Shown here one piece after another: positions 646 to 37,625 of a stretch of 64,000 nucleotides of DNA. The first letter of the stretch is position 1; each line of letters opens with the position of its first letter. Under the pieces are notes generated by a model that saw nothing but the letters and a program-made list of their open reading frames with translations, had not been told where the DNA came from and ran no database searches. Made by a program: the position numbers and the translations under genes. Source of the DNA: Hallerella succinigenes (lineage in GTDB: Bacteria > Fibrobacterota > Fibrobacteria > Fibrobacterales > Fibrobacteraceae); assembly GCF_002797675.1 (NCBI RefSeq), contig NZ_PGEX01000001.1, positions 372,001-436,000 on the forward strand, written 5' to 3'.

Positions 646-1647
646 CTAGTCCTTTACACAACGAACGGAATGCCCGTAGTACTTACTGTTGTAGTACAGG
701 TACGCGCGGTCGTAGTAGTAGTACAAGAGCATGCCGTACGCGTAGTAACTACTGCTCTCCGTAGAACTCCAGAAGTACGCGTAGCGGCCCTCGTCGATGA
801 AATCCCCACTGAGGAACCTGTAGCCGGCAGGCAACGCCGAGAAACCGAAAGAGTCCTCATTGGTGATTCCGTCATATGCCGTCCAACCCGTCTGCGACTT
901 GAGCTTGGCACCGGCTGTGGATTTACCGCCCACTGCCGTGAACAGCGTATTCCATTCATCGTAGCTTGGCAAGTGCCAACCCTCGGGGCAAACTATTTTT
1001 GCTGCCGCCCAGGTGTAAAGGCGACCGTATTTTTCGCAATTTGCAGCGACATTGCCGTAACACCAGCTATTTTCCTTGAGACTCGGGGTCTTCACGCTGT
1101 CTGCATAATTCAGGTTCTCTGCCATCCACACTTGTTCGCCGATTTTCACCGTCTTGTATGTGTTGCCGTCGCGGGAGTCGGTCATGGTGCCGTAGATAAT
1201 ACCCATCTCACTGCTAGAACTTTGCTCATTTTCGCTAGAGCTCGAATTCACATCAGCAGAACTGCTGGATTGCGTCGCTTCGCTCGAACTGGATTGCGGC
1301 GCCTCGCTCGAACTGGATTGTGGCGCCTCGCTTGAACTGGATTGCGTTGCCTCGCTCGAACTGGATTGCGGCGCCTCGCTCGAACTGGATTGTGGCGCCT
1401 CGCTTGAACTGGATTGCGGCGTTTCACTCGAAGAAGAACTTTCCATGACACTCGAAGAAGAACTCTCTATGGCACTAGAAGACAAGCCGTCATTACGAAT
1501 CGTCGAAGAGGACGAAGGAATCTCCACGGCACTCGAGGAAGACAGTTCCTCAATTTCCGTATCCTTGGCAGAAGCACTGTCACTATCGCAGGCGACAAGC
1601 ATCGCAGACAGGGCGAATGCACCAACAAACAGTTTCGTGAAATTCAT
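646..1647 (-). CDS. FISUMP-domain lipoprotein, tandem copy 1, with serine-rich repeat linker
   Basis: A 333-residue lipoprotein. The signal ends in LVAC with Cys20 as the lipidation site, so the protein should be anchored in an envelope membrane. Residues about 35-155 are a serine-rich linker built from a 24-bp tandem repeat (units like QSSSSEAP). The C-terminal 175 residues are the Fibrobacter succinogenes major paralogous domain: DSRDGNTYKTVKIGEQVWMA, then CPEGWHLPSYDEW, FWSSTE and a final SVRCVKD, which suggests a C-type-lectin-like fold. The start is the ATG at 1647, preceded by GGAGG; an in-frame ATG at 1659 overlaps that ribosome site and is less likely. The C-terminal 49 codons before the constant tail are hypervariable against copies 2 and 3 (see the variable-region entries). 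The ligand is unknown. Confidence 0.9.
   Translation of the reverse strand: MNFTKLFVGAFALSAMLVACDSDSASAKDTEIEELSSSSAVEIPSSSSTIRNDGLSSSAIESSSSSVMESSSSSETPQSSSSEAPQSSSSEAPQSSSSEATQSSSSEAPQSSSSEAPQSSSSEATQSSSSADVNSSSSENEQSSSSEMGIIYGTMTDSRDGNTYKTVKIGEQVWMAENLNYADSVKTPSLKENSWCYGNVAANCEKYGRLYTWAAAKIVCPEGWHLPSYDEWNTLFTAVGGKSTAGAKLKSQTGWTAYDGITNEDSFGFSALPAGYRFLSGDFIDEGRYAYFWSSTESSSYYAYGMLLYYYYDRAYLYYNSKYYGHSVRCVKD
670..816 (-). other. Hypervariable region of FISUMP copy 1 (candidate DGR variable repeat)
   Basis: This 147-bp segment (49 codons) aligns without gaps to 1782-1928 and 2670-2816. It is bounded upstream by constant GCCGGCTACAGG and downstream by constant TCCGTTCGTTGTGTA. Variable codons are nearly all NNC: at the first codon the three copies read TTC, AAC and TAC; at the eighth GAC, GGC and CTC; at the thirtieth CTC, TAC and ACC. 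Between them lie fixed blocks such as TTC TGG AGT TCT ACG GAG. This is what reverse transcription of an AAC-rich template with random copying of adenines would give. It is a pattern call; no template repeat was found in the window. Confidence 0.7.
1265..1432 (-). repeat. Seven 24-bp tandem repeats encoding the serine-rich linker
   Basis: The octamer CTGGATTG recurs exactly every 24 bp at 1265, 1289, 1313, 1337, 1361, 1385 and 1409. Each unit encodes an eight-residue block of the type EAPQSSSS. The units also form a 72-bp higher-order period (EAP, EAP, EAT twice), which suggests expansion in blocks of three. Copies 2 and 3 of the gene family lack this expansion, so linker length varies between paralogues, probably by slippage or unequal crossing-over. 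Confidence 0.9.
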
Positions 1648-1757
1648 GAAACCCTCCATTAAATCTATTTACCGCATAAATTTAATAAACAAAAAAACGG
1701 CAGGCGAAGCACTGGCCAGAAAAAGAGGAAATCTAAAAGGATACAACCCTGGAATTG

Positions 1758-2627
1758 CTAGTCCTTTACACAACGAACGGAAAGCCCGTAGTACTTACTG
1801 TAGTACTCCAGGTACGCGTAGTCGCTGCCGTAGTACAAGTACATGTAGTACGCGTAGTTACTACCGTACTCCGTAGAACTCCAGAAGTACGCGTAGTTGC
1901 CCTCGCCGTAGTAATTCCCAATGCTGTTCCTGTAGCCGGCAGGCAACGCCGAGAAACCGAAAGAGTCCTCATTGGTGATTCCGTCATATGCCGTCCAACC
2001 CGTCTGCGATTTGAGCTTGGCACCGGCTGTGGATATACCGCCCACTGCCGTGAACAGCGTATTCCATTCATCGTAGCTTGGCAAGTGCCAACCCTCGGGG
2101 CAAACTGTTTTTGCTGCCGCCCAGGTGTAAAGCCGGCCGTATTTTTCGCAGTATCCAGCGACACCGTCGTAACACCAGCTCTTTCCCTTGAGACTTGCGG
2201 TCGTTACACTGTCGGCATAGTTCAGGTTTTCGGCCATCCAGGTCTGGGTGCCGATGACCACCGTCTTGTAGGTCTGGCCGTCGCGTAAATCTGTCAGCGT
2301 TTTTGCGGTTGCGTCGTAAACACTGCCAGCGCTTATGTTTTCAGAAGAACTGCTGGATTTCGTCGTTTCACTCGAAGAGGAGGAATTGTCATTGCGAATC
2401 GTCGAAGACGATGAAGCAATCTCAATGGCACTCGAAGAGGAACTCTCTATGGCACTGGAAGACAAGCTGTCATTACAAATCGTCGAAGAGGACGAAGCAA
2501 TCTCCACGGCACTCGAGGAAGACAGTTCCTCAATTTCCGTATCCTTGGCAGAGGCACTGTCACTATCGCAGGCGACAAGCATCGCAGACAGGGCGAATGC
2601 ACCAACAAACAGTTTCGTGAGTTTCAT
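1758..2627 (-). CDS. FISUMP-domain lipoprotein, tandem copy 2
   Basis: A 289-residue lipoprotein, with lipobox LVAC at Cys20 and a signal and first linker almost identical to copy 1. The serine-rich linker spans about residues 36-100. The FISUMP domain follows, with CPEGWHLPSYDEW, FWSSTE and C-terminal SVRCVKD. The ATG at 2627 has an AGAGGG ribosome site. The gene ends 110 bp before the start of copy 1 and begins 19 bp after the stop of copy 3, so the three are probably a tandem-duplication cluster and may be co-transcribed. The final 49 codons before the constant tail differ strongly from copies 1 and 3 while the flanks hardly differ. A surface-exposed binding role is inferred; no ligand can be named. 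Confidence 0.9.
   Translation of the reverse strand: MKLTKLFVGAFALSAMLVACDSDSASAKDTEIEELSSSSAVEIASSSSTICNDSLSSSAIESSSSSAIEIASSSSTIRNDNSSSSSETTKSSSSSENISAGSVYDATAKTLTDLRDGQTYKTVVIGTQTWMAENLNYADSVTTASLKGKSWCYDGVAGYCEKYGRLYTWAAAKTVCPEGWHLPSYDEWNTLFTAVGGISTAGAKLKSQTGWTAYDGITNEDSFGFSALPAGYRNSIGNYYGEGNYAYFWSSTEYGSNYAYYMYLYYGSDYAYLEYYSKYYGLSVRCVKD
1782..1928 (-). other. Hypervariable region of FISUMP copy 2 (candidate DGR variable repeat)
   Basis: Same boundaries and same 147-bp length as the regions in copies 1 and 3. Besides NNC codons, single adenine-compatible changes are seen: codon 22 is GGT here and AGT in the others, codon 5 is AAT against GAT, and codon 49 is CTT against CAT. The one column that breaks the rule is codon 41, which reads TAC, GAG and GAC in copies 1, 2 and 3, so a third-position G replaces C here. 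Confidence 0.7.
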
Positions 2628-2645
2628 GGAACCCTCTTATTTTCC

Positions 2646-3539
2646 CTAGTCCTTTACACAACGAACGGAATGCCCGTAGTTCTTACTGTAGTAGTCCAGG
2701 GGCGCGTCGTGGTAGTCGTAGTACAAGGTCATGTAGTACGCGCCGCTACTACTGCCCTCCGTAGAACTCCAGAAGAGCGCGTTGTAGCCCTCGAGGCTGT
2801 AATCCCCACTGTAGTACCTGTAGCCGGCAGGCAACGCCGAGAAACCGAAAGAGTCCTCATTGGTGATTCCGCCATATGCAGCCCAACCAGTCTGCGATTT
2901 GAGCTTGGCACCGGCTGTGGATTTACCGCCCACTGCCGTGAAGAGAGTGTTCCATTCATCGTAACTTGGCAAGTGCCAACCCTCGGGGCAAACACCCTGG
3001 ACTTTGCCAGAAAGACCGCAAATCTTGCCGTAGCCGCAGTCTAGCGGATTGTCCGCATCGGTTGCAAGTTTCACCGAGTCCATCGCCGCCGCCCAGGTGT
3101 ACAGGCGACCGTACTTGGAGCAGTTGGAGGGATCGTCATCATAACAGTAGCTGTTCTCCGTCTCGTAATTCAGGTTTTCGGCCATCCAAGTCTGCTCGCC
3201 GATGACCACCGTCTTGTAGGTCTGGCCGTCGCGCAAATCTTTCAGCGTTTTTGCGGTTGCATCGTAAACACTGCCAGCGCTTATGTTTTCAGAAGAACTG
3301 CTGGATTGCGTCGTTTCACTCGAAGAAGAACTTTCCATGACACTCGAAGAAGAACTCTCTATGGCACTGGAAGACAAGCTGTCATTACGAATCGTCGAAG
3401 ACGATGAAGCAATCTCCACGGCACTCGAAGAAGACAGTTCCTCAATTTCCGTATCCTTGGCAGAGGCACTGTCACTATCGCAGGCGACAAGCATCGCCGT
3501 CAAGGCAAAAGCACCGAGAGAAAACTTGGCGAAATTCAT
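2646..3539 (-). CDS. FISUMP-domain lipoprotein, tandem copy 3
   Basis: A 297-residue lipoprotein. The start is the ATG at 3539 behind GGAGG (an upstream in-frame ATG at 3569 has no such site). The signal ends LVAC at Cys20. A serine-rich linker of about 60 residues follows, then the FISUMP domain. Unlike copies 1 and 2 it carries an insertion of about 30 residues (around AMDSVKLATDADNPLDCGYG) before CPEGWHLP, as also seen in the distant FISUMP gene at 30059. So the array mixes two versions of the domain core but shares signal, linker start and C-terminal framework. It is first in the tandem cluster and lies downstream of the transketolase terminator, so it should have its own promoter. Confidence 0.9.
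   Translation of the reverse strand: MNFAKFSLGAFALTAMLVACDSDSASAKDTEIEELSSSSAVEIASSSSTIRNDSLSSSAIESSSSSVMESSSSSETTQSSSSSENISAGSVYDATAKTLKDLRDGQTYKTVVIGEQTWMAENLNYETENSYCYDDDPSNCSKYGRLYTWAAAMDSVKLATDADNPLDCGYGKICGLSGKVQGVCPEGWHLPSYDEWNTLFTAVGGKSTAGAKLKSQTGWAAYGGITNEDSFGFSALPAGYRYYSGDYSLEGYNALFWSSTEGSSSGAYYMTLYYDYHDAPLDYYSKNYGHSVRCVKD
2670..2816 (-). other. Hypervariable region of FISUMP copy 3 (candidate DGR variable repeat)
   Basis: 147 bp, gap-free against copies 1 and 2. Examples where this copy differs: codon 14 CTC against TAC, codon 25 GGC against TAC, codon 39 CCC against TAC, codon 46 AAC against TAC. Fixed codons GCG, ATG, TTG, CTG, AGT AAG and GGG are interleaved exactly as in the other copies. 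No stop codon can arise from NNC codons, a known design feature of DGR variable repeats. Confidence 0.7.
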
Positions 3540-3575
3540 TAAAACCTCCAAAATAAACCTTATTGGCATGAATGT

Positions 3576-25785: not shown

Positions 25786-27666
25786 GTGCCAAGACCGAAG
25801 AAAAATAACGGTTCTTTTTCCGTTCAATTGATTTCTGATATGGTTCCCCCGGATGCCCCGACCCCAGATCTTTCCGCTCTGGGAGATCTCGCCGCTCCGA
25901 TTACTTTCCCCGAAGACCAGCCGAAGCCTGAAGAAGCTCCGAAACGCCGCGGACGCCCCCGTAAAAACGCAGTCCCCAAAGAAATAAGCATAAAACAGGA
26001 TTCCGCACCGGAAGTGCAAGAACAGCCTAACACCGTCGAAGCACCGGAAATGTCCGCTCCAACATCGGAACTTTTCGGTGAACCGGAAGCCGTCGTCACT
26101 CCGGGCACAAGCGAACTCACTGAAGAAAATCAGGGTTCTCTCCCGAACAACGACGGAACCTTCTCCGAAAATTCCATGGAAGCCGCACAGAATAATCCGG
26201 CGCTCGAAGCTCCGGCACCCGATGCCCCGGCATTCGGCGGAAACGGCAACAACAATCGCCGTTTCAACAACAACGGCAATAATCGACAACACGGCAAGTT
26301 CAATAAGTTTAGCAAGAACAAGTACGGTCGCAACAACCGTTTCTTGCCGCAAGACGATATCCCGGACGATCAGCTCCAGGCTCCTCCGGCCGACCCGGAA
26401 AAGGTCGCCATCGCCATGCATCGCTGGCGCGAACTCCGCAATACGCCGATGTTCGATTTGCAGGAAAAAGCAAACGCACTGAACATACCGGACGTGAAGA
26501 GACTTCGCAAGCAGGCTTTGATTTACCGCTTGCTCGCGGCCATTTCCGGCGAAGGCGCTCCGATTTATACGGAAGGCACTCTCGAAATTATGAAGGAAGG
26601 CTACGGATTCCTCCGCAACGCCGACCTGAACTACCTCGCCGGTCCTGACGATATCTATATCAGCCCGAACCAGATTCGCCGTTTCGAGCTCAAGTCCGGC
26701 GACTCGATCACGGGTCTTGTCCGTCAGCCGCGCGACAACGAACGCTACTTCGGTCTCGCCCGCGTCGATACGATCAACGGCGAAGATCCGGCAAAAGCAA
26801 AGCACCGTGTCGCCTTCGAATACTTGACCCCGATTCATCCGTATCAAAAGCTGAATCTCGAATGGCGTCAGGACGAATATTCGACCCGCATCATGGATCT
26901 TTTCTCCCCGATCGGTAAGGGTCAGCGCAGCATCTTGCTCGCTCCGCCGCGTACCGGTAAGACGGTTCTTTTGCAGAACATCGCAGGCGCGATTGCCAAG
27001 AACCATCCGGAAGTCAAGCTCTTTGTGCTTTTGATCGATGAACGTCCGGAAGAAGTGACCGACATGCGTCGCCATGTGAAGGGTGAAGTCATCGCTTCCA
27101 CTTTCGATGAACCTCCTGAACATCACACGCAGGTTGCCGACATCCTTCTTGAAAAGGCAAAGCGCCTTGTCGAATACGGCAACGACGTCGTAATCCTTCT
27201 TGATTCCATTACGCGCTTTGCCCGTGCAAACAACGTGGTGATTCCGCATTCCGGCAAGATTCTTTCCGGTGGCGTAGATGCTCTTGCCATGCAACGCCCG
27301 AAGCGTTTCTTCGGTGCAGCCCGAAAAATCGAAAATGGCGGTTCCCTCACGATTATCGGTACCGCTTTGATCGAAACCGGCAGCCGTATGGATGAAGTCA
27401 TCTTTGAAGAATTCAAAGGTACCGGCAACATGGAACTCGTGCTCGACCGTCGCATTTCCGAAAAGCGTATCTGGCCGGCTATCGACATTTTCAAATCCGG
27501 CACTCGCAAGGAAGAACTTCTTCTCGACGAAGATACCCTCCGCCGCGTCTGGATTTTGCGCAAGTTCCTCCAGGAACAGACCTCCGTGGAAATCATGGAA
27601 TTCATGCGAGACAAGCTTCAAAAGACAAAGAACAACGAAGAATTTTTAGCCTCGATGAATGGCTAG
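25786..27666 (+). CDS. rho: Transcription termination factor Rho with long disordered N-terminal extension
   Basis: A 626-residue Rho, against about 420 in E. coli. The extra 200 residues at the N-terminus are low in complexity: an AT-hook-like RRGRPRKN near residue 56, acidic and proline-rich parts, and an Asn/Arg-rich stretch ([20 protein letters not shown]). The normal Rho follows: RNA-binding cold-shock-like domain ([27 protein letters not shown]) and the ATPase with P-loop [25 protein letters not shown] and [13 protein letters not shown] start behind AGGAG. It unwinds RNA and ends transcription. Long N-terminal inserts are known in Bacteroidetes and Actinobacteria. Confidence 0.95.
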
Positions 27667-27676
27667 GAGTCAAAAC

Positions 27677-28486
27677 ATGTCTCAGAGAATCGCATTTGCT
27701 GGTGCAGGTAACATGGGCGGAGCCATTCTCCGCGGATTGCTTCAGGCGGGGCACAATCCCCAGGACGTTCTCTTTTTTGAACCCTTTGAAAGCACGGCAA
27801 AATCCGTCGCCGATCTCGGGGCCGTTCGTTACAGCGACTTCGGAAAAATGGCAAACGAAGCCGACGTTCTTTTCCTTTGCGTCAAGCCTCAAATTTTCAA
27901 GGCGGTCGCGAGCGAATGGAATGCCAGCGCCCAAAGCAACACGTCCAAACCGGAAATCATTTCCATCATGGCCGGGGTTTCTCGCCAAAAAATTCTGGAC
28001 GCGCTGAACTTTGCCCACGGCGACGTCGTCCGGGTCATGCCCAATTTGCCATTGACCGTCGGGAAAGGCGCCATCGCCATCGCTTCGGACGGCGTTTCCC
28101 AAGAATCCCTCGAAGTCGCTAAAGAACTCCTTTCGACTGTCGGCATCACCGTGACCGTCGGTGAAAACCTAATTGACGCGGTGACGGGCCTTTCGGGCAG
28201 CGCTCCGGCTTATGTCTTCGAATTCATCGAAGGTCTTGTGCGTGGCGGTGTGAAGATGGGCCTTTCCCGCCCTGTCGCAATGCAGCTGACTCTCGCCACC
28301 ATCGAAGGCAGCGTCGAACTGCTGAAAAAATCCGGCAAGGACACAGGTGAACTCTCCGCCATGGTTTCTTCCCCGGCCGGCACGACGATTGCAGGCGTCC
28401 AGGTTCTGGAAGACGCCGGTCTTCGTGGAACCTTGATGCACACGGTCGAAGCGGCAACGCTCCGTTCCCAGGCTCTCGGCAAATAA
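27677..28486 (+). CDS. proC: Pyrroline-5-carboxylate reductase
   Basis: A 269-residue NAD(P)H-dependent reductase for the last step of proline synthesis. The nucleotide-binding IAFAGAGNMGGAI is at the N-terminus. RVMPNLPLTVGKGA, LSGSAPAYVFEFIE and SPAGTTIAGVQVLE are the family signatures. The ATG at 27677 follows AGGAG; the in-frame ATG at 27659 overlaps the rho stop and lacks a site. It lies 10 bp after rho and 6 bp before the sigma-54 activator, so the three are likely co-transcribed. Confidence 0.95.
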   Translation: MSQRIAFAGAGNMGGAILRGLLQAGHNPQDVLFFEPFESTAKSVADLGAVRYSDFGKMANEADVLFLCVKPQIFKAVASEWNASAQSNTSKPEIISIMAGVSRQKILDALNFAHGDVVRVMPNLPLTVGKGAIAIASDGVSQESLEVAKELLSTVGITVTVGENLIDAVTGLSGSAPAYVFEFIEGLVRGGVKMGLSRPVAMQLTLATIEGSVELLKKSGKDTGELSAMVSSPAGTTIAGVQVLEDAGLRGTLMHTVEAATLRSQALGK

Positions 28487-28492
28487 AATTCC

Positions 28493-29836
28493 ATGGGCAA
28501 AACTCGGATTTTCTTCCTTTCCGAAGAGAACGAAAGCATTTCTTTTTTAGAAGACGTGCTTTCCAACGTGGACGGGTATGAAACCTTTCTTTGCCCAGAC
28601 TCTTTGAATGCCGTCGAAGATTTCCGCCGATTTCTCCCGGCAATAGCTGTAGTCGATTTGGACAAGACATACCCCGAATCGCTCTTTCAGACCTTGCAGG
28701 ATATTTCTCCGGCAACGCGCTTTATGGGCGTCGGTTCGGACATTCTCCATTTAAATCCATTCCAGCAGCGATTGTACAGCGGCGTCTTAAGCAAAGAAGA
28801 ACTCCGGCTGCGCTTTATGACTGTCGTCAATGAACTCAAGCAGCAGTCCGAAATCCTTGCCGCCATCAAAGAATCCCTGAAAAAAATTGTCGGAAAAAGC
28901 GACGCCATCAAACGCCTTTACGACTCCATTCTCAAGGCCATCCGAAGCAAAGGGGCGACCGTTTTAATCCAAGGAGAATCCGGAGTCGGCAAGGAACTGG
29001 TCGCCAAAGCGATCGCATCGGTTTCAAACCATCTGATTTCCGTGAATTGCAGCGCCATTACGGAAAGCCTTTTTGAAAGCGAGCTGTTCGGCCACGTTCG
29101 CGGAGCCTTTACAGGCGCCATTTCCGAACATCGGGGGCTTTTTGAAGCGGCAAACGGCGGCATTCTCTATTTAGACGAAGTCGGCGACATTCCGCTGCCC
29201 ATGCAAGCCAAACTTTTGCGGGCATTGCAAGAGGGCGAAATCCGTCCCGTCGGTTCCAACGAAACCAAAAAAGTCAAAGTGCGGATTATCGCAGCGACCA
29301 ATCGCGATTTGCAAAAAGAAACCCTTGCCGGACGTTTCCGAAGCGATTTGTTCTACCGCTTGAATGTCATTCCCATTTACGTCCCCGCCCTTCGAGAACG
29401 CAAAGAGGACATCCCGGAACTGGTCGCGCATTTTATCCGCGAATACTCCATTCGGCCAGGCCTCTCGCCCCGCATTTCCCCGCAAACCATGCAGGAACTC
29501 ATCCGATACGATTGGCCGGGCAACATTCGGGAACTCGAAAACGCCATCCACCGCGGGCTCGTGCTGATGAACGGCGACGAACTCAAGAGCGAAAACATCT
29601 TTACCACGCCCATTTCCGCACAGGCGAACACCCCGATTCGACGCGATTGGAGAGGCATTTCCTATGCCGCGTTTCAAGAGCTGCAAAAGCAGGAATTGCG
29701 GGAATACATCGTGGCGAAAATCCGGGAAAACGACGGTTCCATCTCCAGAACCGCCGAAAGTTTTGGCATTTTACGCCCCGGGCTCTACGCCCTCGCCCGC
29801 CGATTGGGGCTAGATATTTCCAAGCGGAATAAATAG
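28493..29836 (+). CDS. Sigma-54-dependent transcriptional activator, NtrC type, with degenerate receiver
   Basis: A 447-residue regulator. The N-terminal 120 residues look like a receiver fold with Asp in VVDLDKT, but the usual acidic pair (here SEEN), the Thr and the Lys-Pro are not conserved, so control by phosphorylation is doubtful. The central AAA+ domain carries GESGVGKE (Walker A), GAFTGA (the sigma-54 contact loop), GGILYLDEVGDI (Walker B) and RSDLFYRLNV. The C-terminal 50 residues (NDGSISRTAESFGILRPGLY) are a Fis-type helix-turn-helix. It should drive genes with -24/-12 promoters; its targets are not visible here. No histidine kinase is adjacent. Confidence 0.92.
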   Translation: MGKTRIFFLSEENESISFLEDVLSNVDGYETFLCPDSLNAVEDFRRFLPAIAVVDLDKTYPESLFQTLQDISPATRFMGVGSDILHLNPFQQRLYSGVLSKEELRLRFMTVVNELKQQSEILAAIKESLKKIVGKSDAIKRLYDSILKAIRSKGATVLIQGESGVGKELVAKAIASVSNHLISVNCSAITESLFESELFGHVRGAFTGAISEHRGLFEAANGGILYLDEVGDIPLPMQAKLLRALQEGEIRPVGSNETKKVKVRIIAATNRDLQKETLAGRFRSDLFYRLNVIPIYVPALRERKEDIPELVAHFIREYSIRPGLSPRISPQTMQELIRYDWPGNIRELENAIHRGLVLMNGDELKSENIFTTPISAQANTPIRRDWRGISYAAFQELQKQELREYIVAKIRENDGSISRTAESFGILRPGLYALARRLGLDISKRNK

Positions 29837-29919
29837 ACGGGACTTCCAAGGCTCCCATCAGCTATTGCGGGGAATCCGGCGATTTCTCGTCAACGAACAA
29901 CTAATAATTGATAACAACC

Positions 29920-30054
29920 AGCCGACCGCCCAAAAAACGGGGCGGCCTTGCCTACGGCTAGGCAGGCTCGGATATACAAACAAATGAACTTGTCGAAGCA
30001 TGGTTGCTGTCCTTCGACAAGCTCAGGGACCGTTTGTCGAACTCGTCGAAGCAC
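29920..30054. repeat. Inverted-repeat cluster, left flank of the collagen-like FISUMP gene
   Basis: GACCGCCC and GGGGCGG face each other around 29924-29945. GCCTTGCCTA and TAGGCAGGC pair around CGG just after. CTTGTCGAAG at 29989 pairs perfectly with CTTCGACAAG at 30012, followed by GCTCAGGGAC and a degenerate second copy (TTTGTCGAACTCGTCGAAGC). The same CTTCGACAAGCTCAGGGA word recurs at about 31817-31835 on the other side of the gene. These look like dispersed REP-type palindromes. Confidence 0.7.
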
Positions 30055-30058
30055 TGCC

Positions 30059-31663
30059 TCAGTCCGAGTCCCTGAGGCAACGTACGGAATACCCGAAGTC
30101 CTTGAAGTCGTCGTAGTAATTCAAGAGCACGGACTCGTTGCCGTAGTGGAAGTACCAGCGGTACGCATTGCCACTGCTGCGCTCCGTAGAACTCCAGATG
30201 TTGGCGCTCTCGCCGGCGTAGTAGTAATTGCCAGGGCCAAGGAGGCCCGCCGGCAACACGGAAAAGCCGGATTCGTCCGTGCCGTTCCCGGTCTTTCCTC
30301 CATGATCATCATAGTCCCAACCGCTGGTGGACTTGAGCTTTGTTCCTGCGACATCCTCTCCACCGACGGCCTCGAAAAGCACACTCCATTCCTCTTTACT
30401 TGGCAAGTGCCAACCTTCGGGGCAGACGCCGCGGACCGGTTCCGTCGCGTTGCACTCTACATCGTAACCGCAGCCCTTGCCGCCGTCGCTGAACACCCCG
30501 GCACTATCCATGGCAGCACTCCACAGGTAGAGCCGCCCGTACTTGGCGCAGGAATCCGGCTTGTCGTTGTAGCAGTAACTTTTAGCGGTTCCTTCATTGT
30601 AATCATAGTTCAAGTTCTCCGCCATCCAGGTCTGGGTTCCAACAGTCACGGTCTTGTAAACCTGGCCGTCGCGGGAATCCGTGAACATTCCATAGGAAAT
30701 CGCAGGATTCAGATATTGCCAATTCGCCTTTTCTTCAATCCACTTCTGTTCCCAGCACTGGTAGGAAGTCCCGTTCACCGTAATTTTCTCGCCGTCCAGC
30801 GAATCCGAACACACCAAAACGATTTGGTTGTCTAGGCACATTTGCGTCGCGGGATCGTAAGATTCCGTTCCGCATAACTCGTAGATGGAATCGGCAGCGC
30901 AGAATTGCGTTGCTAGGTCGTAAGATTTGGAGTCGCACAAGTCGTAGGTAGCACCATCGATGCAGAACTTTTTCGCCGGATCGTAGGCTGCCGCTCCGCA
31001 CATGGCCTTATACAGAGTCGTCGTCGAGGCGTTCTCCCCTTCGCCGCAGGTCACTTCCACAACGCCATCGCCCTGGTCGGCGATTTCGCAGCCCGAGCCA
31101 TTTTCACCGGCTTCCCCCTTCTCCCCATTTTTCAATACGCCAATGGTATCGCCGCCGCATATAACATTAAATCCTGAATTGTCTTCTAACGCTACGGCGG
31201 TGCAACTTGCGCCATCCAAGCCCTTTTCGCCTTGCTCGCCTTTTTCACCCTGAATTCCCTGCTCGCCCTGTTCGCCTTTTTCGCCCTGTTCGCCGTTCAG
31301 CAATACGCCGATGGAGTCGCCACCGCAAAGTATCTTGTAACCGTTGTCGATGGCTTCCGCAATGCAGCCTTTTCCATCCGAACCCACTTCGCCGTCCGTT
31401 CCATCCTTGCCGGCTTCGCCCTGCTCGCCCTTGAGCGTCGTCCATTTTCCGTCGGCGCAGTAATAAACCTGCGCGGAATCCTCGGCAAATACGATTTCGC
31501 CCACGTTCTCCTCGCCACAGGCGGGCAGCGAATCCCCCGCTGCGACAACGTCAATGCCGGAAGTCTCCGTGACATTCGTTACATTTGTCGTATTTTCATC
31601 GCCGCAAGCAACGATCAAAGCCATGAATGCGACCGTCAAAACAACTGGAAGTGACTTTTTCAT
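30059..31663 (-). CDS. FISUMP-domain lipoprotein with collagen-like repeats
   Basis: A 534-residue lipoprotein with signal MKKSLPVVLTVAFMALIVAC (Cys20). Three blocks of collagen-like Gly-X-Y triplets follow: GEQGEAGKDGTDGEVGSDG near residue 79, GEQGEKGEQGEQGIQGEKG near 123, and GEKGEAGENGSG near 183. Between and after them are small cysteine-containing repeats (YDPAKKFCIDGATYDLC and two relatives). The C-terminal 200 residues are a FISUMP domain (TDSRDGQVYKTVTVGTQTWM, CPEGWHLPSKEEW, IWSSTE, SVRCLRD). Collagen-like stalks with a lectin-like head suggest a trimeric surface display protein. The gene is flanked by repeat clusters on both sides, which hints at local mobility. Confidence 0.88.
   Translation of the reverse strand: MKKSLPVVLTVAFMALIVACGDENTTNVTNVTETSGIDVVAAGDSLPACGEENVGEIVFAEDSAQVYYCADGKWTTLKGEQGEAGKDGTDGEVGSDGKGCIAEAIDNGYKILCGGDSIGVLLNGEQGEKGEQGEQGIQGEKGEQGEKGLDGASCTAVALEDNSGFNVICGGDTIGVLKNGEKGEAGENGSGCEIADQGDGVVEVTCGEGENASTTTLYKAMCGAAAYDPAKKFCIDGATYDLCDSKSYDLATQFCAADSIYELCGTESYDPATQMCLDNQIVLVCSDSLDGEKITVNGTSYQCWEQKWIEEKANWQYLNPAISYGMFTDSRDGQVYKTVTVGTQTWMAENLNYDYNEGTAKSYCYNDKPDSCAKYGRLYLWSAAMDSAGVFSDGGKGCGYDVECNATEPVRGVCPEGWHLPSKEEWSVLFEAVGGEDVAGTKLKSTSGWDYDDHGGKTGNGTDESGFSVLPAGLLGPGNYYYAGESANIWSSTERSSGNAYRWYFHYGNESVLLNYYDDFKDFGYSVRCLRDSD
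30089..30229 (-). other. NNC-rich C-terminal segment of the collagen-like FISUMP gene (possible DGR variable repeat)
   Basis: The last 47 codons before TCC GTA CGT TGC are dominated by NNC codons (TAC, GGC, CGC, CAC, TTC, GAC) around the same fixed frame TGG AGT TCT ACG GAG, NNC, AGY AGT, and GCG TAC as in the 646-3539 cluster. The 15-nt core TGGAGTTCTACGGAG is identical although the rest of the gene is quite different. With only one copy of this type present, variation itself cannot be shown here. Confidence 0.5.
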
Positions 31664-31774
31664 GCATTTTCCTCGAGTTCAAAATGTTTGGTTAGGCGTT
31701 TCCGGGAAAATATAGCCAAAGAATGCAAAGAATGCAAAGATTGCAATGCTAGGCGAGTTGTCAGTCGTCAGTGG

Positions 31775-31940
31775 CCGAGCTATGGCTCGTGCGCCTGTCG
31801 AAGCATGGTTGGTGCCCTTCGACAAGCTCAGGGAGCGCCGGTCATTGAGCTTGTCGAAATGACCACACCAAACCGCTCTCTTCGATGAGCACAGGGAGCG
31901 GTTATCAAAGCACGGTTGCTGAGCCTGTCGAAGCAAACCG
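31775..31940. repeat. REP-like palindrome cluster, right flank of the collagen-like FISUMP gene
   Basis: CGAGC-TATG-GCTCG, then CCTGTCGAAGCATGGTTG, CTTCGACAAGCTCAGGGAGC, TTGAGCTTGTCGAAATGAC, a degenerate CTCTTCGATGAGCACAGGGAGC and a final GCCTGTCGAAGCA. The arms alternate in orientation and can pair. The words match the cluster at 29989-30054, so the FISUMP gene between them is bracketed by the same repeat family. Confidence 0.7.
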
Positions 31941-32060
31941 GTTTTTGCGCGTTTTTACGTGAAAATTGTCCGTCAAGAAAAATTTTGGCCCGTGTGTACG
32001 TGAAAACGGCTACAGTTGTCATGGCGAACGTTTTTCCGTCATTGCGAACCCCGCAGGGGT

Positions 32061-32152
32061 TATACGACACTTGTCAATTTATTGACTTAGTGGAGTTATC
32101 CTCTATGTGGATATACGACACTTGGTAACTTTGTTACCTTAGTGGAGTTATA
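32061..32152. repeat. Two copies of a 39-40 bp hairpin element with compensating stem changes
   Basis: Copy 1 (32061-32099) and copy 2 (32112-32152) share TATACGACACTT on the left and TTAGTGGAGTTAT on the right. The centres differ but each is a perfect stem: GTCAAT-TT-ATTGAC in copy 1 and GGTAAC-TTT-GTTACC in copy 2. CACT and AGTG extend the stem past a mismatch. Between the copies TATCC and GGATA also pair. Keeping a stem while changing its sequence suggests selection on structure or a mobile hairpin family. Confidence 0.65.
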
Positions 32153-32267
32153 CTCGAAGTGTAGAAGCAATCCTTTCCCGCAATCAAGATTGCCACGCCG
32201 CTATCGCGCCTCGCAATGACGGGAGGACCGCAGGGATGAGCGCAGGGATGCCGCGCCTGAAATCGGC

Positions 32268-32900
32268 TTATGCGCCTTCCACGACGGCGATTTCTTCGGA
32301 GGAAAGGCCGTAGAGGGCATAGACCTGCGCATTGATTTGCGCATTCAAAATGGCGATGCGCTGCTGGAGCGTTTTCTTGTCGGCGTCGGACTTGGCAGAA
32401 GCAAGCTGCGTGTGCGCGGCAAGCATTTGGTCTGCAAGGGCGGCGAGAGTTTGCTGCTGTTCGGGCGTGGCGGTGGGAAGAGGAAAATTCTCCAAATATT
32501 TGGTCTTAAAACGGAAATATCCTCCACGAAGAGAAGTTCCTGTTTCTTTCAAGTAAAACCAAATAATAGGCGAGTTCAAAATAGCCAAATATGTTTTGTA
32601 CAAATTAGAATCTGGATTTTTCAAAACAAACGCATATGAAGTGTCGTTATGATAATGTTCTCCGGAATCGAGATACATTGTTGCACCATAGCATACATCA
32701 GGCGTTAAGATTCTTTCCACTGAAAGATTATCGATATTTCGGAAATTCCACAGCGAATACCAAGATGGGTATTTCATACTGGCGGTTCCTCGACTAGCCA
32801 ATCTTTTTCTTAAAGACGAAAAATATCCGTAACAATATGGAAATTGATTTTTCAATTCTTGTTCTTCATAGAGAACGGTTTTTCCATTATCCTTTTTATA
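32268..32900 (-). pseudogene. 3' fragment of a type IIG restriction-modification gene, cut off by the IS630-like element
   Basis: The frame continues from the IS edge as YKKDNGKTVLYEEQELKN and encodes about 210 residues of the target-recognition region of an Eco57I/TaqI-like enzyme: LASRGTASMKYPSWYSLWNF, RILTPDVCYGA and NSPIIWFYLKETGTSLRGGY, then a helical tail. The N-terminal part lies at 34019-36556. Deleting the IS plus one TA joins IYPY directly to KKDNGK in frame. A TTG at 32855 is the only candidate start in the fragment and has no good ribosome site, so this piece is probably not expressed usefully. Confidence 0.85.
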
Positions 32901-34034
32901 ATATTGCTCCGGCGGATATATTTTTTACATAGTCATGCTGCATAAGAGACATGCTTGTCGCCAAAATACTTGATTACTCGTTCAGGGCTGTTGCTCACCA
33001 TTTTCATGTGGGATTCCGCATGGGAGCGTAGCTTTTCGCGAGTCCGAGCCGGTGCGTTGGAAGATATTTCGTGTTTCAGGTCGGCATTAAGACGTTCGTC
33101 AGGATTCAGCTCGGGACTGTAGCTGGGCAGGTAGAATACGCTTATCTTGTCCGTGTTCGCTTCAAGCCATTCCTTTACCGGCTTGCTGTGGTGAACCCTC
33201 AGGTTGTCCATCACGAGAAACACTTTCTTCCCTTTCCCGTCTGCATACACATCCTTCACCAGAGCCGTCATGAAGTCGATGAGCTTCGTCGCGTCGAACG
33301 CCCCGTCAATCATCATCCAGTGGCACTTCCCGCGATTGTTCACCGCCGATATCATGGAAAAGCGCTCCCTGCATCCGGGAGCCTTCACGACCGGGGTCTG
33401 CCCGCAGGGGGCGTAGCTGCGGCCACGGACATCCGTGTTCACGATGGCGGTCTCGTCCGCCCAGTGGATTTCCGCATTCTCGCATACCGCATCGGCCTTT
33501 ATTTTCGGGTATTCCTCTTCGAGCCACTTCTTCACCGCTTCGGGGTTTTGCTCGTACGCGCGGACAATCGGTTTTTGCGGGGTGAAGTTCCATCTTTTGA
33601 GGTAGTCGCCGACCGTTCTCTTGGCCAGCTTCACTCCAAATTTGCTGCGGACAAGCTCCGCAACCGCTTCGCGGGTCCAGAGGGCGAACTTGAACTTGAG
33701 CTGTTCGGGACGCTTGTCCCGGATTAGTTTCTGTATCTCGGATTCTTGATTGGCGGAAAGGAGCCTTTTTTCCCTTTCCTTGCGGCCCCTTGTCTTCGGC
33801 TTGAGCGCATTCATCCCGCCTTTCTCGTAAAGCGATAGAACTGCATCCACCATGGGGCGGCTCACGCCGCAGGTCTCTGCGATCTTGCTTTTCTTGAATC
33901 CCGCCTTCTTCATTTTTACGATTGTCTTCCGTTTTTCGAGAAGGCTCTGGACATTCTTTCTTGCATCATCTTTTTCCATGATGCAAATATAGTAAACTTT
34001 GCTTGTTTTGTAAAGTATTTATCTGCCTAATCTA
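32901..34034 (-). mobile_element. IS630-family insertion sequence, about 1.13 kb, inserted at TA
   Basis: The element holds a single transposase gene and is flanked by TA dinucleotides (TATA on both sides, so the exact cut can shift by 2 bp). Near the ends imperfect inverted repeats are seen: GGCAGATAAATACTTTACA on one side and GGCGGATATATTTTTTACA on the other, 5-10 bp inside the boundary. TA target duplication and one DDE transposase frame are typical of IS630. It interrupts the RM gene in the middle of a Tyr codon. Confidence 0.85.
32933..33979 (-). CDS. IS630-family transposase
   Basis: A 348-residue transposase. The N-terminal part is a winged or homeodomain-like helix-turn-helix (KKSKIAETCGVSRPMVDAVL) followed by a second helical region. 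The DDE nuclease is complete: Asp in IHWADETAI (about residue 170), Asp in FLVMDNLRVHHS (about 260) and Glu in SPELNPDERLN (about 297). No frameshift or early stop is seen, so the element could still be active, in line with a recent insertion into the RM gene. Confidence 0.93.
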   Translation of the reverse strand: MEKDDARKNVQSLLEKRKTIVKMKKAGFKKSKIAETCGVSRPMVDAVLSLYEKGGMNALKPKTRGRKEREKRLLSANQESEIQKLIRDKRPEQLKFKFALWTREAVAELVRSKFGVKLAKRTVGDYLKRWNFTPQKPIVRAYEQNPEAVKKWLEEEYPKIKADAVCENAEIHWADETAIVNTDVRGRSYAPCGQTPVVKAPGCRERFSMISAVNNRGKCHWMMIDGAFDATKLIDFMTALVKDVYADGKGKKVFLVMDNLRVHHSKPVKEWLEANTDKISVFYLPSYSPELNPDERLNADLKHEISSNAPARTREKLRSHAESHMKMVSNSPERVIKYFGDKHVSYAA

Positions 34035-36556
34035 TAAGGATAAATCATGTATTCTTTTTTATCGTTAAAAGAATATCTCTGAATGGTTTTGCCTGTCAAT
34101 ACAGGTTTGCAAATTCCTTTTTCTATTTGGACGTCTTGATCTAGAGCCTCTGAATAACCTGTAATAAATTTTTTGGTTTCTGTACAGTTTTCTAAATAAA
34201 ATGCTTTGTTATCGCCGGTGACAATGCCTTGATAAATCCCTTTAAATACCTCTTTCACTGTATTTTTTTGTTGATGTAATTTTTCAAGAACTGTTGCAGC
34301 CATTCCTGTTTGAAAACTCCATCGGCTTGTATCGCTTAATTTTTCTATGGGGAACGTTTCCGACACAACGCCGTTTTCAATTTCAGTGGGTATCACTTGC
34401 GCATAAGAAAAATTTTTGTTCTGATGGGAAAGTCCGATGACGCAGGTATAAACCGATGCCGAAGAAAAGACTTGCTCCGAGCCAAAATGCGTTAAAAAAT
34501 TCAGCGCACGATTTTTGTATATGAAAGAGCGTAATCCCACGCCAAAGTCGCTGTTCAAGAATTTATGCGGACAAATAAAAGAGAGATAGCCGTCTTTGTT
34601 CAACAAGGTGAATCCTTTTTCCAGGAATAGAACATAAAAATCGAACCGTCCTGTTGCAGACTGGTAATTCTGTTCATAAAACTTCGCTTCTTCTTCATAA
34701 TTTTCGCGCAGACCTTGCACACGCAAATACGGCGGGTTGCCGATGACGCAGTCAAATCCGCCAGTCCGCGTTTTTTTCGGGGCGTTGCGGGGTGTCCCCG
34801 CAGAGGGGGTAGCGAAAGACGCTTTGGCTTTCGCGAGGGGGAGGCTTCCCCCGTCCGTAAATACTTGGGGAAATTCCTTTTCCCAGTCGAAGGCGTTCAC
34901 CTTTCTTTGCTCTTCCATGCAAAAGTCCAGAAAGTTTTTGTCGGCGTAGAAGTCGCTTCCGATGAGCGAGTTGCCACACTTGATGTTTTCCCGCATGTCG
35001 GGGAGGATTTTGTTTTGCGCAAGATCCGAAGAGCGGAACATTTCGCCCATGCCGCTTTGGGAGAGGGCCTTGCCTTCGTTTTCGAGCAGCTTGAGGAAGA
35101 GCGAGAGTTTGGTGACTTCCACCGCCTGCGCGTCGATGTCCACGCCGTAGATGTTGTTCAAAAGGATGCGTTTTTTTTCTTCGACGGAAAGTTTGTAAGA
35201 AAGGGTTGCGGAGTCTTTGTAAATGATTCCCGATTTTTCGGCCCTGGCGCGGTTTTTGTCGCTGTCGTAGTAGTCAAGGTGGTAGGCAAGAAGATACTGG
35301 TATGCGCCGATGAGAAAGCTCCCCGAGCCGCAAGCGGGGTCCACGAAACGCATTTTCGCAATCTGCTCGGGAGTGCGTCCGGCGATTTTTTTGCCGATGG
35401 TGTTTTCCACGATGTAATTCACGATGTAAGTGGGGGTGTAATACACGCCGCCGGCTTTTTGCACTTCGGGCTTTTCAACGACTTCCACGCTGTGTCCGTT
35501 TTTCGTCTTTCGGCTGAAGCGGATGATTTTGCCGAGGAAGCGTTCGTAAATCGAGCCCAGGATTTCCACGGGAAGGACGCTGAACTCGTATGGGCATTTG
35601 GGGTAGTAAAGTTCGCCGACGATGCTTTCGAGGGTTTTGTCCTGAATGGAAAGGCTGTCGGTAAAGTCGTCCTTGGCGAAAAGGCCGGAGTTGAATTTTT
35701 TGTCCGACGCGTCGAAGAGTTTTTGGAGGCGGGGGTAAATGCCGTTTTTGCTCCGGGCGATTTTTCCTAGAGCGTCGTATTCTTCGATTTCCTTGTCTTC
35801 GCAGATGCGCAAGAAGAGGATGCGGTCGATGATTTTCTGGACGCTGGAGGTGAGATTGTATTCGTCGATTTCGGCGTTGTGGAGCGCGATGTCTTCGGCT
35901 AGGAGAAGTCGCCAACGTTCTATCATGGAAAGGATGTCGTCGTCCACGCTGGCCGTCCCCTTTTTGTCTTTCGCGCTTTCAAAATAAGTGTCGAACTTGC
36001 CCAGATCCACAGCTTCGTAGCTGAAGCGGTTGTAAAGCTCTTCAAATTTTTCGGCGTATTCTTCGAAGGTGTAATATCCGATGCGCGCCGTGCCGGCGGT
36101 GTCCTTGGAGTTGGGCTTGATGCGCGTGTCGTAAACGGCGAATTCCGAGAAGTCCGTGAGGATGGCGATGGGCATTTTGGAGGTATAGGCGTAGCGGCGC
36201 ACTTGCAAGGCGGGGGCTGGGTCCTTTTTCAGGTCCACGCTGGGCTGCTTGGCTTCCACGTAGATTTTTTTGATGCCCCCGAAACAGAGGGAATAGTCCG
36301 GGTGTTTGGTGCGGTTGTCGATGGTCACGCGGTCTTCGGGGATGACTTCCCGCTTGTCCGGGCGGGCACCCTTTTCGTTTTTCACGTCCCAGCCGAGGCA
36401 CTCCAAAAGAACATCGATGAATTGTCCACGGCAGTTGGCTTCGTTAAATTCTTTAGAAAGATAATAGGTTTTGTTCTCGTTGAAGAGCCGGGCTAATTCT
36501 GCAACGCGCGCTTTGCGCTCTTCCAAGGTCATCGTTTTGCATTTTGGCTGCGACAT
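34019..36556 (-). pseudogene. 5' part of a type IIG restriction-modification gene (Eco57I-like), interrupted by IS630
   Basis: The first 841 of 845 residues belong to the original enzyme; the last four (RLGR) and the stop come from the IS. An N-terminal nuclease-like domain shows PDYSLCFGG and VEAKQPS, fitting a PD-(D/E)xK site. The adenine methyltransferase has FVDPACGSGSFLIG (motif I) and CVIGNPPYLRV (motif IV). A recognition domain starts around IYQGIVTGDNKAFY and continues in the fragment at 32268. The intact protein would have been about 1,050 residues. The start ATG at 36556 follows GGAG. Without most of its recognition domain the product is probably inactive. Confidence 0.9.
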
Positions 36557-36671
36557 GGTTTGCTCCGTTTGCGATTTTTCCGTAAAATATATATAAAGCA
36601 GCTCTGGAGCCGCAAGGAATATCGGAGCCTCCGAGGATTCCGTTTTTCTTTTGGCGGTTACGGGAAATCCC

Positions 36672-37625
36672 CTATCTCTGCCGAATCCGGTAGCCTTTCT
36701 TTTCCAAAAGCCTTAAAACATTATCCCCGGAACCGACCAAATGCGCCGCACCGACAACGATAAACGCCTTTTCCCCGGCTGTCGCCAACGAATCGATACT
36801 CTCTGCCATGCGCAAATTCCGCTTTGTATAAAGCGCTTCCTCGTAATCCGCGTCCGTCTTATCCATAGCAAAGATCCGCTGCATTTTTGGCACGTCACCG
36901 CATTTCCAAGCGTTCGCAATTTCGGTAATCAACGAATCCGCATGTGTAATCTCATCGAGCGTATTCTTCAGGTAGCGAACGCCTAAAGAATCTTCTGCAT
37001 CCGAAAAAATGCTCACCTGTTCCCCGGGTGTTTCTATCGCAAAGACCTTCTTGTTCTGATCTTCGGCACGGAAAAGCAGTTCCTTGTCAATGCCATATTC
37101 GCCCGAAAGCCCCGTGCGTTCAATGGCCACGGCAGAAAGCGAAAGTGCGATCATCCACGGGCGAAATGGCTTCAAAATTTCAAGCGGAATGTTCCAAGCC
37201 TTTGTCACGGAATCGAGTTCCGCATACAATTCCTGGGGAAGAATACTGTCCAGTTTCACGCCAGCCGGAAGCCTTCCCTTTTCTGCCATCAAACGGCCCG
37301 TTTCCTGCATTGTACTTTCTTCAGTCAAATCGAGTTCCGCGGCAAGAAGGCTCGAAGCATCAAAAGCCGAATCGATCACAGGCGCAAACGGGTAAAAAGA
37401 GGAATCCGCCAAATGGATACTGCCGAGCAGCCACACGGCAGGCGCTCCTGATTTTTCCGCCTTCCAGAGCAAATGCTTTTCGCCGCACACAGGGCTTTTC
37501 AAAGGCTCCGCAGATTCTTCCGAACGATTCCCTGCACAGCCAACGCATTGCGCACAAAAGAATCCCAGAATGCCGAACTTCCAAAGTTTATTCCACACAG
37601 GACCACCCCAAGAATCCGGATTCAT
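36672..37625 (-). CDS. TraB/GumN family lipoprotein
   Basis: A 317-residue protein with a hydrophobic N-terminus ending in a lipobox-like CVGC, so probably a lipoprotein. The family signature is seen as VWLLGSIHLADSSF near the start, GEYGIDKELL in the middle and VVGAAHLVGSGDNVLRLLEK at the end. TraB/GumN proteins share two GxxH motifs and are suspected metal-dependent proteases; the role is not established. The ATG at 37625 overlaps the ABC ATPase gene by 38 bp; a GTG at 37598 has a better upstream GGGGTGG and may be the true start. It likely belongs to the transporter operon. Confidence 0.85.
   Translation of the reverse strand: MNPDSWGGPVWNKLWKFGILGFFCAQCVGCAGNRSEESAEPLKSPVCGEKHLLWKAEKSGAPAVWLLGSIHLADSSFYPFAPVIDSAFDASSLLAAELDLTEESTMQETGRLMAEKGRLPAGVKLDSILPQELYAELDSVTKAWNIPLEILKPFRPWMIALSLSAVAIERTGLSGEYGIDKELLFRAEDQNKKVFAIETPGEQVSIFSDAEDSLGVRYLKNTLDEITHADSLITEIANAWKCGDVPKMQRIFAMDKTDADYEEALYTKRNLRMAESIDSLATAGEKAFIVVGAAHLVGSGDNVLRLLEKKGYRIRQR

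What the first reader, a model, noticed from the sequence alone, without database searches (positions are those of the whole stretch)
30089..30229. The distant collagen-like FISUMP gene has the same NNC-rich C-terminal frame
The C-terminal codons are again mostly NNC around the identical 15-nt core TGGAGTTCTACGGAG, although the protein is otherwise very different from the cluster at 646-3539. Nucleotide identity of the fixed frame beyond what the protein needs suggests that this gene is, or was, served by the same or a related template.
Basis: partly seen in the sequence, partly recalled or inferred. Interest (0 to 1): 0.6.

Follow-up and report, generated by a model that had tools for sequence, protein, structure and literature searches.

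The report
Orphan DGR target gene, horizontally imported
The end of this surface-protein gene carries the scars of a bacterial mutation machine (a diversity-generating retroelement) that this genome does not possess, and the gene arrived recently in a roughly 9-kb piece of DNA from a related bacterium whose lineage does have that machine.

Summary
Window 30066-30271(-), the 3' end of the collagen-like FISUMP lipoprotein gene 30059-31663, is a bona fide variable region (VR) of a diversity-generating retroelement (DGR). The TGGAGTTCTACGGAG core has a chance of 1.6e-4 from background codon usage. The matching template is not in this complete 3.127-Mb genome: no DGR reverse transcriptase (RT), Avd or template repeat (TR) was found. 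It lies in same-genus genome G005, in an Avd-TR-RT locus serving about ten dispersed FISUMP VRs. Against that TR, 25 of 57 template adenines differ but only 11 of 143 other bases (p=1.5e-8; 0 of 200,000 codon-position-matched shuffles). Seven of the 11 recur in G005's own VRs, so an older template version probably wrote this VR. The template is related to, but not the same as, whatever wrote cluster 646-3539. The gene sits in a sharply bounded import, window about 27.70-36.74 kb: 97-100% identical to G005 in most of its alignable parts, against a 70-80% background. The nearest relative, G004, is 92% identical outside and lacks the gene. Best explanation: DGR-written in a G005-like donor, imported by homologous recombination, now frozen. 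Orphan targets are known (Treponema denticola).

The parts
30059..31663 (-). Target gene D: lipoprotein (lipobox-like LIVAC by eye) with collagen-like repeats and a C-terminal FISUMP domain, 534 aa, intact
   Evidence: ORF; PF09603 and PF01391; TIGR02145
30066..30271 (-). DGR variable region (VR) of gene D
   Evidence: Best match outside G005 to the G005 template repeat, E 2.8e-44; A 25/57 vs non-A 11/143 mismatches
30182..30196 (-). Fixed core TGGAGTTCTACGGAG (WSSTE), identical in the G005 template repeat
27700..36740 (.). Imported segment of G005-like origin. Breakpoints at about 27.70 kb (inside proC) and 36.70-36.75 kb; a resident-like patch at about 28.15-28.45 kb. Window 29.84-34.72 kb has no full-length counterpart in G005, only repeats and parts of the methylase gene
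   Evidence: 50-bp and 250-bp identity profiles vs G004, G005, G003, G001
27659..28486 (+). proC, pyrroline-5-carboxylate reductase; left homology arm with the left breakpoint
   Evidence: TIGR00112
28493..29836 (+). Sigma-54 activator gene, 99-100% identical to G005 and about 70-78% to G004
   Evidence: PF00158
32036..32221 (.). Dispersed repeat typical of the G005 lineage (over 15 related copies listed in G005; apart from a 51-base partial match, one in this genome)
34019..36556 (-). Eco57I-type restriction-modification methylase, 5' part, 95-99% identical to G005 where it aligns
   Evidence: PF07669
32933..33979 (-). DDE-type (IS630-like) transposase inside the import, between the two pieces of the methylase gene
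   Evidence: PF13358; about seven near-identical copies in the genome
32268..32855 (-). Detached 3' part of the methylase (TaqI_C specificity domain)
   Evidence: PF12950; the G005 counterpart L206:3-1379 carries both domains
646..1659 (-). Cluster FISUMP gene A, with a VR-like C-terminus of a different template lineage
1758..2627 (-). Cluster FISUMP gene B, as A
2646..3569 (-). Cluster FISUMP gene C, as A

Best explanation
Gene D is an orphan DGR target. In a G005-like donor, an error-prone reverse transcriptase copied a template repeat, scrambled its adenines and wrote the copy into the 3' end of D (mutagenic retrohoming). That changed the ligand-facing residues of the FISUMP domain of a surface lipoprotein displayed on a collagen-like stalk. 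A segment of about 9 kb carrying D then replaced the resident region here by homologous recombination between proC and the TraB-family gene. Since this genome has no RT, Avd or TR, D is now a frozen variant. Shown by sequence: the A-specific TR-VR relation, the TR/RT/Avd locus in G005, no detectable machinery here, and the import tract. Inferred: donor identity, order of events, ligand binding, loss of diversification.
For: G005 has Avd-like gene, TR and RT in order; the RT carries IGxxxSQ, typical of DGR RTs (motif from general knowledge). Nine G005 VRs differ from the TR mainly at adenines (20-33 of 46-59 A; 1-12 of 133-143 non-A), as D does: 25/57 and 11/143, Fisher p=1.5e-8, 0 of 200,000 position-matched shuffles; 21 of 23 altered codons keep the template third base, including T-ending ones such as AAT to CTT. 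Of 18 family TRs, G005's fits D far best (score 233 vs 91). Seven of D's 11 non-A differences recur in G005 VRs. Import: in most alignable parts of window 27.70-36.74 kb identity to G005 is 97-100%, against 70-80% around it; G004 is 92% identical outside but 68-81% or absent inside, with 105 bp in place of 6.9 kb. D's scaffold outside the VR falls in the G005 FISUMP clade (93/91, 87/82). No RT with two models, no Avd, no TR pattern in the complete genome, while the custom RT and Avd models recover G005.
Against: D itself, its collagen-like part above all, is not in the G005 assembly; that spot in G005 holds other genes and a contig break at a transposase-like sequence. The exact donor is therefore not in hand, and D lies inside the import by position rather than by its own 97-100% match. 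D carries small in-frame indels and four or five private non-A changes relative to the TR. Tree support for D inside the G005 clade is moderate. The C-type lectin fold could not be shown.
Confidence: 0.86

Rival explanations
1. Vertical leftover: the ancestor of this genome had a G005-type DGR that wrote D in place, and the RT, TR and Avd were later lost.
For: RT presence is patchy (27 of 101 family genomes) and several RT or Avd genes are broken (stops in G006, G038, G040, G107). The other FISUMP genes here, including cluster 646-3539, also look like VRs without a template.
Against: D is embedded in a recent import and is absent from the nearest relative G004 at an otherwise syntenic site. 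Its scaffold groups with G005 FISUMPs. This does remain the best guess for the A/B/C cluster.
Confidence: 0.07
2. D is still diversified in trans by machinery that was missed (plasmid, prophage, or a divergent RT).
For: Remote VRs served in trans are common: about ten in G005, and reported elsewhere (PMC10907252, PMC4891356). Related RTs occur in contigs of the viral collection.
Against: The genome is one contig, scored 100% complete, with no RT at E<=10 by the custom model and no TR pattern beyond the reversed-pattern control. D keeps older-template bases, so it was not recently rewritten.
Confidence: 0.05
3. No DGR: the NNC-rich frame is codon preference plus ordinary divergence of paralogues under protein constraint.
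For: C-ending codons are preferred in this genome (62%). WSSTE and SVRC are conserved protein motifs.
Against: The A-specific mismatch excess to a real TR next to an RT persists after matching codon position; third bases follow the template even when it ends in T; the core uses rare codons.
Confidence: 0.02

Closest known systems
Treponema denticola orphan and remote DGR targets (PMC4891356)
   Same: Lipoprotein target genes in strains with no RT or TR, whose VRs differ from the TR of other strains mostly at adenines. For one SP32 gene the authors raise 'acquired alone' as an alternative to leftover.
   Different: Here the gene lies in a recombination tract with mapped breakpoints from another species of the genus, which favours acquisition alone over leftover. 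The target is a FISUMP domain in Fibrobacteraceae.
DGR targets with Fib_succ_major (FISUMP) domains in human gut metagenomes (PMC4159848; also cited in PMC8934634)
   Same: Lipoprotein whose C-terminal FISUMP domain is the likely DGR-diversified region.
   Different: That report concerns human gut data. Here the FISUMP family's namesake lineage is shown to carry FISUMP-coding TRs, with one TR serving about ten dispersed genes in G005.
FISUMP (TIGR02145/PF09603) paralogues of Fibrobacteres (PMC4704652)
   Same: The amplified family (54-119 in most of the Fibrobacteraceae and Fibromonadaceae genomes listed there, 47 matches here), filed there under cellulose-binding proteins.
   Different: A text search of that paper for 'retroelement' gave nothing; here part of the family carries DGR signatures.
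Bordetella phage BPP-1 DGR
   Same: Adenine-specific TR-to-VR writing with an RT and an Avd-like partner (in G005).
   Different: Bacterial, many remote targets, and in this genome a VR only.

Membership tests
DGR variable region | Differs from a template repeat chiefly at template adenines | tested here: met
   25/57 A vs 11/143 non-A against the G005 TR; p=1.5e-8; 0 of 200,000 shuffles
DGR variable region | Lies at the 3' end of a target gene, typically a surface or ligand-binding protein | tested here: met
   30066-30271 is the 3' end of a FISUMP lipoprotein-like gene
Complete DGR in this genome | DGR-type reverse transcriptase | tested here: not met
   No match with PF00078 (E<=0.001) or a 5-sequence DGR-RT profile (E<=10); G005 scores 7e-197 with that profile
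Complete DGR in this genome | Template repeat | tested here: not met
   TR homologues with E below 0.01 lie in FISUMP genes; none is an A-only template of another; TR pattern no more frequent than its control
Complete DGR in this genome | Accessory protein Avd | tested here: not met
   No match in this genome; G005 7.6e-130
DGR in same-genus genome G005 | Avd, TR, RT and VR together | tested here: met
   L056/L092: Avd-like ORF, TR, RT, plus about ten VRs. The Avd itself is only weakly matched by public models (E 0.037)
DGR variable protein | C-type lectin fold | tested here: inconclusive
   Model pLDDT 76, pTM 0.78, but no PDB match at E<=0.001; some weak C-type lectin hits among others; no sequence match to solved structures
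Active DGR target | VR varies between strains or cells | not testable with these tools
   No second genome or reads of this strain or species were available
DGR variable region | IMH sequence and nearby hairpin or cruciform | not tested
   Only the 3' bases GGGTATTCCGTACGTTGCCTCAGGGACTC were compared; D shares them with older G005 VRs
FISUMP (TIGR02145) | Domain above curated cut-off | tested here: met
   194 bits vs cut-off 41.65

The most novel reading that the evidence does not exclude
FISUMP genes form a shared, recombining repertoire in Fibrobacteraceae. A minority of genomes hold the retroelement that writes new variants, and finished variants spread as frozen genes by homologous recombination to genomes without it, so that a community shares one diversification machine.
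Probability: 0.3. Interest if true: 0.65.

Novelty: new member of a known kind. Interest (0 to 1): 0.5.

Why it matters
It gives a mechanism for the hypervariable ends of the FISUMP family, the large paralogue family of the Fibrobacter group with no settled function. It also separates two fates of DGR targets that are usually confounded: left behind after machinery loss, or received without machinery. The precise donor-type tract makes the second case concrete and testable.

Tried and rejected
Same template as the 646-3539 cluster: rejected, 39-42 of 146 non-A mismatches to the G005 TR, against 11 of 143 for D.

Any FISUMP gene of this genome acting as template for another: rejected, no pair showed A-only differences.

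The truncated FISUMP frame at G000:C1:2492736-2493023 as a silent template: rejected, it is another VR-like end.

Hidden RT, TR or Avd in the genome: none found.

D orthologue in G005: not in the assembly.

Fold evidence for a C-type lectin: inconclusive.

Naming the organism: the one genome-contig scan left the own genome out.

Full report
Setting. The window is G000:C1:372001-436000 of a one-contig 3.127-Mb genome scored 100% complete. It has 47 matches to the FISUMP domain, which points to Fibrobacteraceae; no tool named the species. Gene D, window 30059-31663(-), encodes a 534-aa protein with a lipobox-like start (read by eye), collagen-like repeats and a C-terminal FISUMP domain.

Observation. 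The 15-nt core is exact in D and in the three cluster genes A, B and C, and six times in the genome. It uses rare codons, so chance codon agreement is about 1.6e-4 per gene. The C-terminal codons are NNC-rich relative to background.

Template. This genome has no detectable reverse transcriptase. Relatives do: 27 of 101 Fibrobacteraceae genomes match a DGR-RT profile, and the TR next to most of the RTs encodes an asparagine-rich FISUMP C-terminus. In same-genus genome G005 an Avd-like gene, a TR and an RT lie in order. A search with that TR finds about ten dispersed VRs in G005, and its best match in any other genome searched is the finding's own segment, window 30066-30271 (E 2.8e-44).

Against the G005 TR, D differs at 25 of 57 adenines and 11 of 143 other bases. 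Nine of G005's VRs show 20-33 of 46-59 A and 1-12 of 133-143 non-A; two further ones are more eroded. Shuffling mismatches within codon position never reaches the observed number at A in 200,000 trials, and 21 of 23 altered codons keep the template third base. Seven of D's 11 non-A differences recur in G005 VRs (for example AAT to AAC, GGT to GGG, GTC to GTA), which suggests an older template version. G005's TR fits D far better than 17 other family TRs.

Relation to the cluster. A, B and C also look DGR-written. Among them, VR codon positions 1 and 2 differ in 49 and 40 of 198 comparisons and position 3 in only 2. They fit the G005 TR poorly (39-42 of 146 non-A mismatches) and no TR available here well. 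They belong to a different template lineage, now without a found template.

How D got here. An identity profile shows a sharp switch. Outside window 27.70-36.74 kb the genome is about 92% identical to G004 and 70-85% to G005. Inside, it is 97-100% identical to G005 over most aligned stretches, apart from a resident-like patch near 28.15-28.45 kb and a dip near 36.6 kb, and 68-81% to G004 or absent there. G003 and G001 side with G004, so this genome is the recombinant. G004 has 105 bp where this genome has 6.9 kb containing D, a G005-type dispersed repeat and a methylase gene split by a transposase. The FISUMP scaffold of D, VR excluded, falls among G005's FISUMPs with moderate support. D itself is not in the G005 assembly, where the spot carries other genes and a contig break, so the donor was a G005-like strain or relative.

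Mechanism. Shown: TR-VR relation, complete DGR in G005, no detectable machinery here, import tract. Inferred from established DGR biology: mutagenic retrohoming wrote the VR in the donor lineage; the varied residues bind a ligand; D is frozen here. The expected C-type lectin fold could not be demonstrated.

Known or new. FISUMP domains as DGR targets are known (PMC4159848), and orphan VRs in RT-less strains are known in Treponema denticola, where acquisition alone was raised as an alternative (PMC4891356). This is a new member of a known kind, with unusually direct evidence for acquisition without the machinery. I found no paper in the held library linking Fibrobacter FISUMP paralogues to DGRs, but that library is incomplete.

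Noticed in passing
646-3539: The three tandem FISUMP genes show near-total third-base conservation (2 of 198 differences) with many first- and second-base changes in the VR: a DGR signature with no template or RT in this genome or in near relatives G004 and G003.
   Followed up: partly
32268-36556: An Eco57I-type restriction-modification methylase gene inside the import is split by an IS630-like transposase (32933-33979); the G005 counterpart L206:3-1379 is uninterrupted over the matching stretch. About seven near-identical transposase copies exist in the genome.
   Followed up: partly
28150-28450: A resident-like patch inside the imported proC, consistent with mosaic (discontinuous) recombination.
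   Followed up: no
L092-L097 (G005): One TR appears to serve about ten dispersed FISUMP VRs; two of these VRs carry frameshifting indels (C116 +2, C41a -22).
   Followed up: partly
L115/L227 (G006), L111 (G040), L114 (G038), L123 (G107): RT or Avd open frames with in-frame stop codons, suggesting decay of DGRs in several Fibrobacteraceae genomes.
   Followed up: no
L229-L238: Contigs of the viral collection carry RTs up to 56% identical with FISUMP-type TRs; whether they are phages or host DNA was not checked.
   Followed up: no
G000:C1:2492736-2493023 (L037): A short FISUMP C-terminal fragment with the same core, in an open frame of about 117 aa and without the rest of the domain.
   Followed up: partly
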